Part shown: positions 3,178-39,901 of the stretch, one piece after another | How positions within the stretch are numbered: position 1 is the first letter of the stretch | How the letters are laid out: the number at the start of each line of letters is the position of its first letter | From: Lactobacillus sp. | GTDB lineage: Bacteria; Bacillota; Bacilli; Lactobacillales; Lactobacillaceae | Reading direction: 5' to 3' | NCBI GenBank assembly: GCA_030530865.1 | Contig: JAUMUC010000002.1 | Location: 124,001 to 188,000, forward strand | Length of the DNA: 64,000 nt | Program-made: the position numbers and the translations under genes | Notes under the pieces: generated by a model | Database searches by the model: none | Told to the model about the DNA's origin: nothing | What the model saw: only the letters and a program-made list of their open reading frames with translations

Positions 3178-6100
3178 TAACTAATCTCCTCTTTTAAATC
3201 ATTCAGTGACACTGAGAGAACCTGACTTACACCAGATTCTTGCATTACAACCCCAAATAATTGGTCAGCTTGTTGCATCATGCCCCGACGGTGGGTAATG
3301 ACGATAAACTGAGTTTGGAAATCATATTTTTGCATAAAGTGAGCAAAACGAGTGACGTTAGTTTCATCCAAAGCGGCTTCTACTTCATCTAGAATACAGA
3401 AAGGCACTGGATTAACTTGCAACATACTAAACAGCAAAGTAATAGCTGTTAAAGCTCTTTCTCCCCCTGATAACAAGCTCAATCTTTGCAACTTCTTGCC
3501 AGGCGGTTGAGCAATAATTTCCACCCCAGTCGTCAACAGATTTTCTGGATCGGTCAAAACTAGTTTAGCGTTACCACCGCCAAAGACCCGTGGGAAAATC
3601 TTTTCAAAGTTTTCCGCAACTTGCTTAAAGGTCTTCTTAAAGCGGTCACTAACTTCTTGATCTAATTCAGACAAACTTGCTTCCAAATTATTTTTGGCGT
3701 TAACTAGGTCATCTTGTTGTCCATGCAAAAAGTCATAACGACTCTTTACTTCTTCATATTCTTGGATTGAATCCAAGTTAACTGGACCAATTTCAGCTAA
3801 ACTCATTTGATGTAACTTAACAGCTTTACGCAATTCAGCCTGAGTTTCTTCAGTATTTTCAATTGTAGCTTGTGACAAAGCATTTTCGTAAGTCAAATGA
3901 TATTCTTCATTCAAAGTATTCAACTTTTGACTTAACTTGCTGTCAATTTTAGCTAATTCAACAGAAAAATGTTCTTGTTCACTAGCAGCATTTTTCCGTA
4001 AATCATAATTCCGACTGCTAATCTCATCAAGATTATTAATCTTAGCTGACATTTGACCCATTGTTTGGTTTAGTTTACCAAGATTTTCATCTAAAGTAAG
4101 CTTTTCTGCACTTAATTTGGCTTTAAGGTCTTCTAATTCAGCTACTTTTGACTTAGATAAATCAGCATTTTCATCCAATAACTTCAATTTTGTTTGGATT
4201 GCCTTCAAATTATTAGAATTTGAATCAAGTGTAGCTTGTTTTTCAAGTTGCTTAGATTTTTCATTATCTAAACGAACCTTCATTGCAGCAAAACTGCTTT
4301 CTAATTGGCTAAGTTCAGCTTGCTTAGCTTGATTCGATTTTGCAAAGTCTTGAATTCCAGTTTCCAAATCAGCAATTTTTTGCTTAAGTTGCTGTTCATC
4401 TTCACCATATTTTTCCTTTAATTTGGTCTTTTCGGTGATTTCTGCTTGAATACGCTTAAATTCTGCTTGATCCTTCTCAGATTCAGCGGCAACAAGCTTT
4501 TCAGCATCAGATAAACGTTTAACTTCCTTTTCTTGCGTTTGATATTTGAAAGCTAATTCACGTAATTCTTCAGTTAAGTGTTGCTTTTCACTAGTCTTTT
4601 CAGCTAATTGACTTTCTAAACTTTTAACAGTTTCTGCCAATTCTTGACACTTACTGCTTAATTTATTTTCTTTGCTCTTGCCAATCTCAATTTGCTTTTG
4701 CAACTTGTTCAATTCAGCTGTTGTCTGCAAAGGTGAATTATTTTTAAGATTTCTGGCACCACCGGTCATTGAACCACCTGGCGTGATGATATCACCATCA
4801 AGGGTAATGATCCGGTAATAACTCACTCGTTGGTGCAACTTAGTAGCTGTTTCAATGTTGTCGACAATAATTACGGTGCCGAGCAAGTATTGAATCGCAT
4901 TAGAAATGTCAGTATCGGCTTTACTTTCAACTAATTCACTGGCAATTCCTTCAAAACCTGGCACATTGTTTAAGACATTTCTGGTTGAAGCCGGAATTTC
5001 ATTATGCTTCAAGCCGTCTAATGGCAAGAAAGTTGCTCGTCCACTGCCAGCTCGCTTCAAAGTTTGGATCGCAGCTTGAGCATTTTTGCGACTATCGGTA
5101 ATCAGATTTTGAACACTACCACCTAAGGCAGTCGTCATAGCTTGACTTAAGCGTTCATCAAAACTAATCAATTCACCAACTACCCCAATCACACCAGGAT
5201 ATTGGTCAAGCCTGTTCAAGATGTTCTTAACGCCGTTATAGTAGCCATCATGACGCTTTTGCATATTATTCAAAACATCAAAACGCGTCACAATCTTGCT
5301 TAATTTTGCACTAACTTCCTGTAACTGACTATTTTCAGTTTGATAACTAGCCTTAGCTTTAGCCAATTGTTGATTTAAATCATTGACGGCTGCTTCTACT
5401 TTGGCAAAAACTTCCTTTTGCTTTTCACCAGCTGCCTTCAAGTTGGCTAATTCACTCTCAGCTTGATGCAATTCTGCTTGATCGCTAGTCAATGGAGATT
5501 TGTCTTGCAACTTTTGTAACTCAGTTTGTAAATAATCAAGTGAGTTGCTAGTAGCTGTTTGATCCCGCAATAACTGCATGTAGTCGTTTCTAGTCGCAGT
5601 CAATTGCTCTTCTAAACTGTCTGGATCACTAGCCAAAGTTGCCTTTAAGTCAGCAATTTGCTTTTTCACTGAGTTAAATTCAGCTTCATCATCAGCTAAT
5701 TTTTGAGAAATTGCCTTCAACTCTGCTTCATCATTAGCGATTCCTTCAGTCAAAGTGGCAATTTGTGATAAATATTCCTTTTTCGTAGCTGAATCGAATT
5801 GATCAGATTGAGCAGCCATTTGCAGTTTCGTGTTGATTTCAGAGAGTTTTTGACCCTTGTCATACAATTCTTGTTGCAAATTATCTCGCTTAGCAGTCAA
5901 TTCTTCATATTTGGCTTTTTCTTGACTAGCTTTTTCTTGAGATTCTTTAAATTCATGGTCAAGTCGATCTAATAATTTCTGACTTTCAGCACTTTTAGCT
6001 GACTTTTCGGCTTTTTCAGCACTTAAATCATGGATTTCAAAAGCTAAAAGCGTCTTTAGTTTTTGATCAAGCCCTTCTTTTTGGAACTTGTATTCTTTGG

Positions 6101-37174: not shown

Positions 37175-37789
37175 TTAATCCTCCTGAACCATTTTCCGAT
37201 ATGAATCAATCACACGCTTAACGCTCACGTGTTCGGCATCGACAATTGCCTTAATATGGCTAACTGCATTGGCCACTGTATCATTAACTACGGCATAGTC
37301 ATAATCTTCCATGACCAAAATCTCTTTGCGAGCTTGAGCAATTCTACCTAAAATTACTTCTTCACTTTCAGTGCCGCGATTTTCCAAACGAGATCTTAAA
37401 GTATGAATATCTGGTGGTGTTAAAAAGATGAACACCCCATCAGGCATCTTTTCACGGACTTTTCTTGCACCATTAACGTCAATTTCTAGTAGAACATCGT
37501 TGCCTTTAGCAAGTTGCTCTTCAACTGGCTTAATCGGTGTGCCATAAAAATTACCTACATATTCGTTATATTCTAGCAATTCATCATTATCAATTGCTTC
37601 TTGAAATCTTTCCTTTGTTACAAAGAAATAATCTACACCGTCAACTTCCCCAGGTCGAGGCTTTCTGGTTGTCATCGAAACAGAGTATTGAAAGGGAAAT
37701 ACCTTTTTTTCAACAATGGCTGATTTAACAGTACCTTTTCCTACTCCAGATGGGCCAGATAAAACTAATAAAAGACCACTCTTCACCAT
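37175..37789 (-). CDS. gmk: Guanylate kinase
   Basis: Phosphorylates GMP to GDP. P-loop GPSGVGKGT lies at residues 12-20, with [13 protein letters not shown] and [11 protein letters not shown] for GMP binding. Start chosen is ATG 37789 ([12 protein letters not shown]), with GGAG 6 bases upstream; the in-frame ATG at 37801 has no ribosome site. Length is 204 residues, normal. First gene of gmk-rpoZ. It diverges from the LexA-box gene at 37927. Confidence 0.96.
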
Positions 37790-37863
37790 AACACGCTCCA
37801 TATTATCTAATATCTCTATATTGCACTATCCGTTAGCTTTTTTCAAGCATTTTCAATTTTCTC

Positions 37864-37892
37864 TTGCATTCTTGAACATTTGTTCGTATAAT
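37864..37892 (+). promoter_or_regulatory. SOS-type promoter with LexA box in the spacer
   Basis: TTGCAT (37864-37869) and TATAAT (37887-37892) are exactly 17 bases apart. The spacer contains GAACATTTGTTC (37874-37885), a perfect match to the Gram-positive LexA/DinR half-site pattern GAAC-N4-GTTC, with T before and G after. A repressor bound here would cover the promoter. Confidence 0.75.
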
Positions 37893-37900
37893 CATATTTG

Positions 37901-37912
37901 AAACACATGTTC
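37901..37912 (+). promoter_or_regulatory. Second LexA-like box near the transcription start
   Basis: AAACACATGTTC differs from GAAC-N4-GTTC at one position. Its centre is 27 bases from that of the first box. It covers the expected +1 region and lies just before the ribosome site GGAGG of the gene at 37927. Confidence 0.5.
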
Positions 37913-37926
37913 TGATGGAGGAAGCA

Positions 37927-38205
37927 ATGCATTTACAAAAAATCATTAAATTTTATAACTACTTATTTAGCTACAATAAAAAAGCCCTAACCGTGTATGG
38001 ACAACAAAAGCGTCTCATCAGTATGGCACTGACTACCGCCTTTTTAAAGCGTGGCTACATCATGTTAACAATGCAAAATGGTGATATCTGGATCGGCCAA
38101 ATCATCAAGCGAATTAGCCCACAAGAATTTGCTTTCCGCGTTGATGAACAAAATCGTATTAACTTAATCAAAGTGAAAGATGTCTGCCGAGTAGATTTTC
38201 CATAA
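37927..38205 (+). CDS. Small SOS-controlled protein of unknown function
   Basis: A 92-residue protein. The start is ATG 37927 (MHLQKIIKFYNYLFS), with GGAGG 5 bases upstream; the in-frame ATG at 37915 lies before that site. The N-terminal half is helical and basic. The C-terminal half (IMLTMQNGDIWIGQIIKRIS, FAFRVDE, INLIKVKDVCRVDF) has a five-strand barrel-like pattern. That pattern recalls YolD-like proteins, which are often LexA-controlled and linked to Y-family polymerases; the similarity is loose. It is the only gene between gmk and recN, on the opposite strand, and is converging with recN. Function is unknown; a role in the DNA damage response is inferred from the promoter. Confidence 0.75.
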   Translation: MHLQKIIKFYNYLFSYNKKALTVYGQQKRLISMALTTAFLKRGYIMLTMQNGDIWIGQIIKRISPQEFAFRVDEQNRINLIKVKDVCRVDFP

Positions 38206-38233
38206 AAAAAGCAAGGAATTACCTTGCTTTTTT
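38205..38233. terminator. Bidirectional terminator inside the recN stop region
   Basis: The stem AAAAAAGCAAGG / CCTTGCTTTTTT has a 5-base loop that contains the recN stop codon (TTA at 38219-38221). The last codons of recN form one arm. It ends both the plus-strand LexA-box gene and recN. Confidence 0.92.
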
Positions 38234-39901
38234 AGTTTGTGCTAATAATTCAGCAGCGTTCTTCATAGCTGAATCGGTTAATTCTTTACCAGCTAACATT
38301 CTGGCAACAGCTTCAACTGATTCTGTGTCATCTAAAGCTCTCACACTAGTCTTGGTGTCATGATCAGCTTGCGTCTTTTCGATTAAGTAACGTTGATCAG
38401 CACTTGCTGCGACTTGTGGAGCATGCGTAATCGCGATCACTTGCTTAGTTTTCGCAATTTCTCGCATCTTTTGTCCAATGGCTTCAGAGACGCGACCTGA
38501 CACACCCGTGTCAATTTCGTCAAAAATCATGGTTCCAACAGGTTCTACTGTCGCAAATACCGCCTTTAAAGCTAGCATTAAACGAGATTGTTCCCCACCT
38601 GAAGCGACCTTGGCTAAATCTTCAAGTTGACTACCTTCATTAGCTGCGATCAAGAATTGCACTTCATCTAAACCACTTTTGGCAAAATCAGCTAAGTCAG
38701 TTAGAGCAATTTCAAACTTGGCATGTTCCATATACAAATCAGACAATTCAGCACTAACTCGCTTTTCCAATTCTTTAGCCGCCTTTTGTCTAGTGGCAGT
38801 TAAGTTTTCAGCTTTGTTAGTCAATTCTGCAGTGATCTTAGCCAATTCTTTTTCTAGCTTAGCTTGATCAAAGCCCCCTGCATCTAAATCAGATAATTCA
38901 CCAGCAACCTTTGTTTGAAAAGCAATGACATCACTTAAAGTTGGACCATACTTTTTCTTTAAGCTAGTCAACAAGTCTAACCTTGAGACAACTTGCTTAT
39001 AACGATCTTCGTCAAAGTCCATCTCATCAAAAATTAATTCTAATTCTTGGCGAGCTTCACTAAAAGCGGTACTACCTTCTTGAACCATTTGTTGGAAATT
39101 TTCAAAGCGGTCGCTATCATCAGCTAATTGATTTGCTGTATCACTAGCCTTAGCACTCAAAGCTTGTAAGCCATTTTCATCATCATCAAAAAGTTGTTCA
39201 AAAAATGCGACATTATCTGCAATTTGTTGGAAATTATCTAAATCCTTGAATTCTGCTTCTAATTGGTTATCTTCATCTGGATCAGATAAGTTAGCTTTTT
39301 GTAATTCATCCAACTGATATTCTAAAATATCAACCTTTTGTGCTAATTCTTGCGAATGTTCTTTAAGTCGAGTGACTTTATTAGATAACTCTTTCCAACT
39401 TTGATACGTTTCTTGGTAGTCAGCCAATTGCCTAGTCAACTTTTTCCCTGCAAAAGCGTCTAACATTTGTAATTGAGCTGCTTTTTGTAAAAGAAGTTGA
39501 TGATCGCTTTGCCCATGCAGGTCTACCAAATATTGACCCACTTCTTCCAACACATTGATCGTTGTCAATTGACCATTGATCCGCAACAAATTTCGACCAT
39601 GACTACTTAGTTGACGATTGATGATAATTTCACCATCAGCTTCGGGAATGCCATATTCGTCCAAAATTTTAGTTAATTCAGACTTTTCATCATAGCTAAA
39701 AACCCCAGTGATAGAGGCTTTTTCTTGACCGTGGCGGATCATTTCTTTTTGCCCGCGGCTACCTAAAAGCAAGGATACAGCATCAATTAAGATGGACTTC
39801 CCTGCACCAGTTTCCCCCATCAAGACAGTCATTTTGGGATAAAAGCTAATTGCAACATGTTCAATAATAGCAAAATTTTCGATTTCTAATTGAATAAGCA
39901 T
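38219..39901 (-). CDS. recN: DNA repair protein RecN
   Basis: SMC-like ATPase for double-strand break repair. The 560-residue protein has Walker A GETGAGKSILIDA at about 29-41, a central coiled coil, and C-terminal signature ASGGEQSRLMLALKAVF with Walker B TMIFDEIDTGVSG. Length is normal. It starts 1 base before the tlyA-type gene ends. No LexA box is seen directly before it, because it lies inside the operon; the SOS box at 37874 controls the convergent gene instead. Confidence 0.97.
   Translation of the reverse strand: MLIQLEIENFAIIEHVAISFYPKMTVLMGETGAGKSILIDAVSLLLGSRGQKEMIRHGQEKASITGVFSYDEKSELTKILDEYGIPEADGEIIINRQLSSHGRNLLRINGQLTTINVLEEVGQYLVDLHGQSDHQLLLQKAAQLQMLDAFAGKKLTRQLADYQETYQSWKELSNKVTRLKEHSQELAQKVDILEYQLDELQKANLSDPDEDNQLEAEFKDLDNFQQIADNVAFFEQLFDDDENGLQALSAKASDTANQLADDSDRFENFQQMVQEGSTAFSEARQELELIFDEMDFDEDRYKQVVSRLDLLTSLKKKYGPTLSDVIAFQTKVAGELSDLDAGGFDQAKLEKELAKITAELTNKAENLTATRQKAAKELEKRVSAELSDLYMEHAKFEIALTDLADFAKSGLDEVQFLIAANEGSQLEDLAKVASGGEQSRLMLALKAVFATVEPVGTMIFDEIDTGVSGRVSEAIGQKMREIAKTKQVIAITHAPQVAASADQRYLIEKTQADHDTKTSVRALDDTESVEAVARMLAGKELTDSAMKNAAELLAQTKKAR

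What the first reader, a model, noticed from the sequence alone, without database searches (positions are those of the whole stretch)
37864..38205. Uncharacterised 92-residue gene under a promoter with two LexA-type SOS boxes
TTGCAT and TATAAT (17-base spacing) enclose GAACATTTGTTC, a perfect GAAC-N4-GTTC match, and a one-mismatch copy (AAACACATGTTC) follows with centres 27 bases apart. Tandem LexA boxes over a promoter suggest tight SOS control. The protein has a basic helical half and a barrel-like half and no family I can name; it recalls YolD-like SOS proteins only loosely. It sits between gmk and recN. It could be a small SOS effector, for example a polymerase, division or repair modulator.
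Basis: partly seen in the sequence, partly recalled or inferred. Interest (0 to 1): 0.72.

Follow-up and report, generated by a model that had tools for sequence, protein, structure and literature searches.

The report
Armless YolD-type SOS gene of lactobacilli
This small gene of a Lactobacillus sits behind two LexA-type sites that mark it as a DNA-damage response gene, a set-up kept in many related bacteria, and its protein resembles a proposed DNA-polymerase helper that lacks the arm thought to reach into the polymerase, so its job is still open.

Summary
A 92-residue gene at 37927-38205 lies between gmk and recN behind two LexA-type boxes, 27 bases centre to centre. The operator is conserved: of 54 genus-level homologues found by protein search (the own one included), 53 have upstream sequence and 51 of these carry a box pair; shuffles gave none. 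In the home genome (82% complete) the only three CGAACNNNNGTTY sites lie at recA, at a Y-family polymerase and here. The promoter-gene unit recurs across Lactobacillaceae and in some other Lactobacillales. The L. plantarum counterpart, lp_1611 by position, was reported 32.9-fold up with peroxide, with a LexA motif (PMC2174512, passages).

Pfam, NCBIfam, PHROGs and PADLOC do not name the protein. Profile comparison links its C-terminal half to YolD-type proteins, the proposed UmuD counterparts of Gram-positive Y-family polymerases. It lacks their N-terminal arm (0 of 93 against 30 of 30) and persists in 8 of 41 X-bearing complete genus genomes without the YolD-linked polymerase, so it is not simply that enzyme's subunit. 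Best reading: a LexA-controlled, armless YolD-barrel protein, probably modulating damage tolerance. LexA binding, fold and effector step are inferred. New variant of a known kind.

The parts
37864..37892 (+). promoter: TTGCAT (37864-37869), 17-base spacer, TATAAT (37887-37892)
   Evidence: sequence; TATAAT directly after box 1 recurs in relatives; -35 weak, no promoter listed by the generic scan
37874..37885 (.). LexA-type box 1, GAACATTTGTTC, between -35 and -10
   Evidence: box pair in 51 of 53 genus-level loci
37901..37912 (.). LexA-type box 2, AAACACATGTTC, between -10 and the ribosome-binding site
   Evidence: spacing of the promoter pair 25-35, mostly 28-29, in the genus-level loci
37917..37921 (+). 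GGAGG ribosome-binding site, 5 bases before ATG
   Evidence: sequence
37927..38205 (+). gene X: 92-aa protein; C-terminal half linked to the YolD-type barrel domain; N-terminal segment helix-like by eye; no YolD arm
   Evidence: no secondary-structure or fold prediction was run
38205..38233 (.). hairpin with T-tracts, probable terminator for gene X and for convergent recN
37175..37801 (-). gmk (guanylate kinase), divergent neighbour that marks the locus
38219..39901 (-). recN, convergent neighbour that marks the locus

Best explanation
Gene X is a LexA-controlled gene widespread in Lactobacillales. Two LexA dimers sit on the promoter, one between -35 and -10 and one just after -10, and keep it shut; DNA damage (RecA-driven LexA cleavage) opens it strongly. 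The product is a small protein whose C-terminal half is the SH3/Sm-like barrel of the YolD family and whose N-terminal segment replaces the YolD arm. The most likely action is as a modulator of damage tolerance: the barrel binds a replication or translesion component that YolD-type barrels also bind, without the arm that would make it a stable Y-polymerase subunit. SHOWN: sequence anatomy, operator conservation, locus conservation, profile homology, missing arm, occurrence without the polymerase. PUBLISHED for the L. plantarum counterpart: strong induction by peroxide. INFERRED: LexA binding and repression, fold, binding partner, effect.
For: Operator: pair in 51 of 53, one box in 2 of 53, 0 pairs in shuffles. 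Home genome: three CGAACNNNNGTTY sites (controls 16 and 18), at recA, the Y-family polymerase and gene X. lexA present, with AGAACATTTGTTTT upstream of it. The HMM was built with many of these sequences; 28 of the 93 lie in L147-L186, which were not used, though some are near copies of ones that were. Gene and operator go together: in 20 genomes without the gene no box pair is found at the gmk locus, 1 of them with a decayed copy. Homology: X profile against the YolD-like protein downstream of the polymerase, probability 96.3, E 1.6e-9, 71 columns (reversed control 0.8); best of 42 control profiles 3.4 for X and 9.4 for the partner family. X HMM against 3,364 ORFs: 28 of 30 polymerase partners at E<=0.1; the first ORF that is neither gene X nor YolD-like is at 0.24 (labels mine). 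The partner family is YolD-like: 99.8 against PF08863 hits. Induction: lp_1611 32.9-fold with H2O2, LexA motif, beside opu genes (PMC2174512, passages); L. plantarum locus L154 shows gmk, X, then on the other strand a transporter operon with an OpuAC glycine-betaine binding protein.
Against: The genus-only profile, which holds the window's own protein, does not reach the YolD partners directly (probability 0.7) or the PF08863 hits (2.2); the link runs through orthologues in other genera (genus against these 98.3, E 1e-14). Against the PF08863 hits the full X profile gives 84.7 and the profile of the Lactobacillaceae loci only 51.9. The reverse search is weaker (partner HMM: 2 X at E<=1e-3, 18 at E<=0.1, of 92 labelled). 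No structure could be predicted. Solved-structure matches are weak: Hfq at E 0.07-0.27, behind an unrelated coiled coil at 0.012. Gene absent in 20 genus genomes, so not essential. lp_1611 was matched by position and description, not letter by letter. Peroxide is not a pure DNA-damage signal. Nothing here shows LexA binding or any effect on damage tolerance.
Confidence: 0.68

Rival explanations
1. Gene X is a true small subunit of the UmuC/UvrX-type polymerase, encoded away from it, as a second UmuD counterpart.
For: Homology to the polymerase's YolD-like partner; both promoters carry LexA boxes; among 60 genus genomes at least 90% complete, presence is associated (33 with both, 8 polymerase only, 8 X only, 11 neither; Fisher p 0.006, not corrected for descent).
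Against: Arm motif in 0 of 93 X against 30 of 30 partners; X kept in 8 of these genomes with no match of 40% identity or more to the polymerase (G012, G016, G023, G037, G046, G049, G062, G073; several of the 8 are close kin); in the home genome the polymerase has its own partner overlapping its end. One of the 8 'polymerase only' genomes, G050, holds the polymerase in pieces.
Confidence: 0.14
2. Gene X is the SOS cell-division brake of lactobacilli, doing the job of YneA or SosA.
For: The same tandem promoter drives LysM proteins that look like YneA in Lachnospiraceae MAGs (LysM by Pfam in L099 and L121 of three tested; others by eye); no LysM-like ORF of 70 aa or more was seen by eye in the 3.6 kb around lexA; very fast evolution.
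Against: LysM is not among the 25 families shown of 27 for 64 members and no membrane stretch is evident in the sequence; a 71-aa membrane-type ORF does lie near lexA, so another candidate exists; YneA absence was not tested genome-wide; homology points to YolD. Odds lowered from 0.15 to 0.13 after I corrected the lexA neighbourhood.
Confidence: 0.13
3. Gene X acts on RecN or on recN expression, because it faces recN.
For: Convergent with recN with a hairpin between them; locus widely kept.
Against: In L. plantarum a transporter operon lies between X and recN and X is still kept; recN is seen near gmk in 17 of 20 genomes that lack X (two of the other three stretches are short).
Confidence: 0.04
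4. The boxes or the gene are chance, or the gene is a passing prophage or plasmid gene.
For: One-mismatch boxes alone are common.
Against: Conservation of operator and place; no tblastn match of one member in 50,697 phage records and of another in 72,556 plasmid records; the family is too divergent for these two searches to be exhaustive.
Confidence: 0.01

Closest known systems
YolD/YqjX family (PF08863), proposed UmuD counterpart of YqjW/UvrX-type Y-family polymerases
   Same: C-terminal half linked by profile to YolD-type proteins; small; LexA-type operator
   Different: No N-terminal RGMxKW...LSDH arm; not detected by the Pfam profile; own conserved locus away from the polymerase; kept in genomes where that polymerase is not found
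lp_1611 of Lactiplantibacillus plantarum WCFS1 (PMC2174512, passages read)
   Same: Same place (next to opu genes; gmk on the other side in L154), LexA motif, reported 32.9-fold up with H2O2
   Different: Described there only as unknown and as a possible transcription regulator; no YolD link or family-wide conservation in the passages read; sequence not compared letter by letter
Alternative small subunits of the YqjW-type mutasome (PMC12926913, passages read)
   Same: Variants of YolD that share only part of the protein
   Different: Those keep the arm and change or lose the barrel; gene X keeps the barrel and lacks the arm
YneA/SosA SOS division inhibitors (recalled; LysM examples)
   Same: Small, LexA-type operator
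   Different: No LysM match seen; homology is to YolD

Membership tests
LexA (SOS) regulon | LexA-type operator overlapping the promoter | tested here: met
LexA (SOS) regulon | operator conserved in relatives that keep the gene | tested here: met
   51 of 53 pair, 2 of 53 single; 10 of 10 hits in other genera carry boxes
LexA (SOS) regulon | LexA encoded in the genome | tested here: met
   TIGR00498 208.8 bits, over cut-off
LexA (SOS) regulon | induced by DNA damage and bound by LexA | not testable with these tools
   Published induction of the L. plantarum counterpart by H2O2 (PMC2174512, passages)
YolD family (PF08863) | match to the Pfam profile over its cut-off | tested here: not met
   0 of 75 genus genomes; none for the window protein; PF08863 not among the 25 families shown of 27 for 64 members
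YolD family (PF08863) | N-terminal RGMxKW / LSDH arm | tested here: not met
   0 of 93 X, 30 of 30 polymerase partners
YolD family (PF08863) | C-terminal barrel domain | tested here: met
   By sequence profile only; the genus-only profile alone fails; fold not predicted
YolD family (PF08863) | tied to a YqjW/UvrX-type polymerase | tested here: not met
   Separate locus; 8 of 41 X-bearing genus genomes at least 90% complete lack a match to that polymerase
YneA/SosA-type SOS division inhibitor | LysM domain or membrane anchor | tested here: not met
   LysM not among the 25 families shown of 27 for 64 members; no hydrophobic anchor evident by eye; no membrane predictor run
YneA/SosA-type SOS division inhibitor | blocks division when induced | not testable with these tools
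   needs bench work

The most novel reading that the evidence does not exclude
Lactobacillales carry a dedicated SOS effector made from the YolD/UmuD-like barrel alone. Freed from the polymerase-entering arm, it acts in trans as a brake or decoy on error-prone synthesis, or on RecA or the replisome, and still does so in species that have lost the error-prone polymerase. This would be a damage-response regulator cut out of a mutasome subunit.
Probability: 0.3. Interest if true: 0.72.

Novelty: new variant of a known kind. Interest (0 to 1): 0.52.

Why it matters
The role of YolD-type proteins is disputed: models put the arm inside the polymerase (PMC12926913, passages), while B. subtilis work found little effect of YqjX loss and no detected contact (PMC13335488, passages). 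A natural barrel-only version under its own SOS-type promoter, found with and without the polymerase, separates the roles of arm and barrel and can be tested in food-grade laboratory strains. It also proposes a family for what the one paper found on lp_1611 calls an unknown, strongly induced gene.

Tried and rejected
Single-protein searches of Pfam, NCBIfam and PHROGs: nothing. All 64 members of A2: only scattered weak hits in NCBIfam, Pfam, PHROGs and PADLOC (a cohesin HEAT hit in 4 of 64, best 3e-4, and BrxA in 1 of 64 at 3e-4, were judged spurious, since few members share them). First genome-contig scan with the window protein: 120 pattern stretches, none confirmed. Viral scan with the polymerase partner of L132: 3 stretches, none confirmed. 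Phage and plasmid tblastn, one member each: no match. Solved structures: weak Hfq hits, taken only as consistent with an Sm-like fold. A clamp-binding motif in the N-terminal Y..FF segment was considered by eye and dropped, as the usual glutamine is missing (recalled motif). PMC3616900 (passages) predicts 13 LexA operons in Lactobacillaceae; the full list was not in the passages seen, so prior cataloguing of this operator cannot be excluded. Literature searches on lp_1611, YolD and Lactobacillus SOS; lp_1611 occurs in one paper of the held library.

Full report
What is there. The window holds a 92-residue ORF (37927-38202, stop to 38205) with GGAGG five bases before its ATG, behind TTGCAT-17-TATAAT. 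A perfect GAACATTTGTTC lies inside the spacer and AAACACATGTTC follows, centres 27 bases apart. gmk is divergent, recN convergent, and a hairpin with T-tracts lies between gene and recN.

More than chance. One-mismatch boxes are not enriched in the window (16 against 22.4 expected), so the case rests on the perfect box and on conservation. The home genome (1.06 Mb, 82% complete) has three places with GAACN4GTTC against 32 for the pattern read backwards. The stricter CGAACNNNNGTTY occurs three times against 16 and 18: upstream of recA, of a Y-family polymerase (Pfam IMS), and of this gene. lexA is encoded and has AGAACATTTGTTTT upstream.

Relatives. A protein search of 150 relatives found 54 homologues including the own one, all in the own genus. 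Of the 54, 53 have upstream sequence (the other is a broken copy at a contig end). 51 carry two boxes within one mismatch, 24-36 bases apart, in the 260 bases before the match; 2 carry one; 10,600 mononucleotide shuffles gave no pair. The pair around TATAAT is 25-35 apart, mostly 28-29. These genomes are related, so the 51 are not independent events. A profile of 28 members found 28 of 397 family genomes, 10 of them in four other genera, and all 10 have boxes. The five of these 10 read in full lie next to gmk or recN.

Reach. A scan of one genome per species for the tandem promoter stopped at 120 stretches. In 93 of 120 the next ORF is a homologue by HMM, 87 of these with gmk or recN in the held stretch. 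In 7 more gmk or recN is there but the ORF is cut off or not recognised. In 20 neither holds: two (L160, L172) look like weak homologues, one (L105) has no ORF in the stretch, and others include LysM proteins, a Y-family polymerase, an SSB protein and small hydrophobic proteins. The loci were chosen by promoter, so they say nothing about promoter conservation, but they show which gene uses this architecture. Hosts are mainly Lactobacillaceae; outside it are Eremococcus, Facklamia and Hutsoniella (Aerococcaceae), Granulicatella and Carnobacterium (Carnobacteriaceae) and Bavariicoccus (Enterococcaceae). Of the six such loci in the first 80, gmk is seen in the stretch in three (L069, L100, L102). 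The protein changes fast: median pairwise identity 27.0% against 70.4% for gmk from the same loci, lower in 399 of 400 pairs.

Loss. Of 21 genus genomes put to a gmk search because they had no gene-X match, 20 gave a gmk locus. None has a box pair: 17 have no box, 2 (L251, L255) a stray one-mismatch site, and L248 is a decayed copy with one box. The gene-X HMM finds L248 pieces (best 6.6e-6) and otherwise nothing better than 0.022. Two stretches (L238, L246) are short. recN is seen in 17 of 20.

Family. Pfam, NCBIfam, PHROGs and PADLOC give no credible family. The home genome's Y-family polymerase is followed by a 122-residue protein with a DPGMQKW...LSDHT arm, matched in 165 of 201 family genomes; the alignment of 30 such proteins matches PF08863 hits at 99.8, although two members tried have no Pfam hit themselves. 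The gene-X alignment matches this partner family over its C-terminal 71 columns at probability 96.3, E 1.6e-9 (reversed control 0.8; best of 42 control profiles 3.4). The six sequences from outside Lactobacillaceae alone give 76.0. The genus-only alignment does not match (0.7), but matches the other orthologues at 98.3. With another program, the gene-X HMM run over 3,364 ORFs recovers 28 of 30 partner proteins at E<=0.1 and no unrelated ORF before 0.24; the reverse search is weaker. The arm motif is in 30 of 30 partners and 0 of 93 gene-X proteins. YolD is placed in the SH3/Sm-like WYL superfamily (PMC4012209, one passage; PMC6511836, section 16 read); weak Hfq matches agree but do not prove it.

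Function. YolD is proposed as the UmuD counterpart of YqjW/UvrX-type polymerases (PMC6511836, passages and section 16), with its N-terminal arm modelled inside the polymerase; alternative small subunits share only that arm (PMC12926913, passages). B. subtilis data question the complex (PMC13335488, passages). Gene X is the reciprocal case: barrel without arm. Among 60 genus genomes at least 90% complete, 33 have both gene X and the polymerase (match of 40% identity or more), 8 polymerase only (one of them in pieces), 8 gene X only, 11 neither (p 0.006 without correction for descent). It is therefore associated with, but not dependent on, that polymerase. I favour a trans-acting modulator of damage tolerance; the partner is unknown.

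Published support. In L. plantarum WCFS1 the unknown gene lp_1611 was up 32.9-fold after H2O2, had a LexA/DinR motif and lies beside the opu genes in opposite direction (PMC2174512, passages). In L. plantarum EGD-AQ4 (L154) gene X lies between gmk and a transporter operon with an OpuAC protein, in that orientation. The identification is by place and description.

Verdict. SOS control is very likely, short of binding data. The armless YolD-barrel identity is well supported by sequence but lacks a structure. The effector role is inferred.

Noticed in passing
L075 (3083-3114 +) and L141 (3556-3587 +, ORF 3614-3829): In Enterococcus italicus and E. mundtii the same tandem LexA-type promoter precedes a 69-71 aa protein with strong hydrophobic stretches; in E. 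mundtii a large ABC-transporter-like ORF follows. Possible SOS membrane effector.
   Followed up: partly
L099, L121, L144, L148, L173, L175; L113: Tandem LexA-type promoters before LysM-like, YneA-like proteins in Lachnospiraceae MAGs and one Acidimicrobiales MAG. Pfam LysM confirmed in L099 and L121, not in L144; others by eye.
   Followed up: partly
L036:384-752 (-), home genome C7: YolD-like partner of the Y-family polymerase, matched in 165 of 201 family genomes but with no Pfam hit in the two members tried.
   Followed up: partly
L189, L190, L193, L196, L204, L206 (order-level genomes, genus handle g24): A short YolD-type gene without the RGMxKW arm, which the Pfam profile does detect, lies near an armed YolD-like ORF; arm and barrel may come apart more than once.
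   Followed up: partly
upstream of gene X in L002, L003, L006, L009, L010, L016, L018, L024, L262: A third, weaker palindrome AAACACTTGTTT lies about 16 bases before box 1 (start to start), over the -35 region, in part of the genus; possible third operator.
   Followed up: no
L248 (genome G071): Decayed copy of gene X with one remaining box, which suggests recent loss; described only.
   Followed up: yes
L094 (record titled uncultured Clostridia bacterium): Gene X there is nearly that of Limosilactobacillus oris (L083), so the record's title is probably wrong.
   Followed up: no
home genome C4:89965 (L032): The third perfect GAACN4GTTC of the genome (GAACCACCGTTC); its context was not examined.
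   Followed up: no
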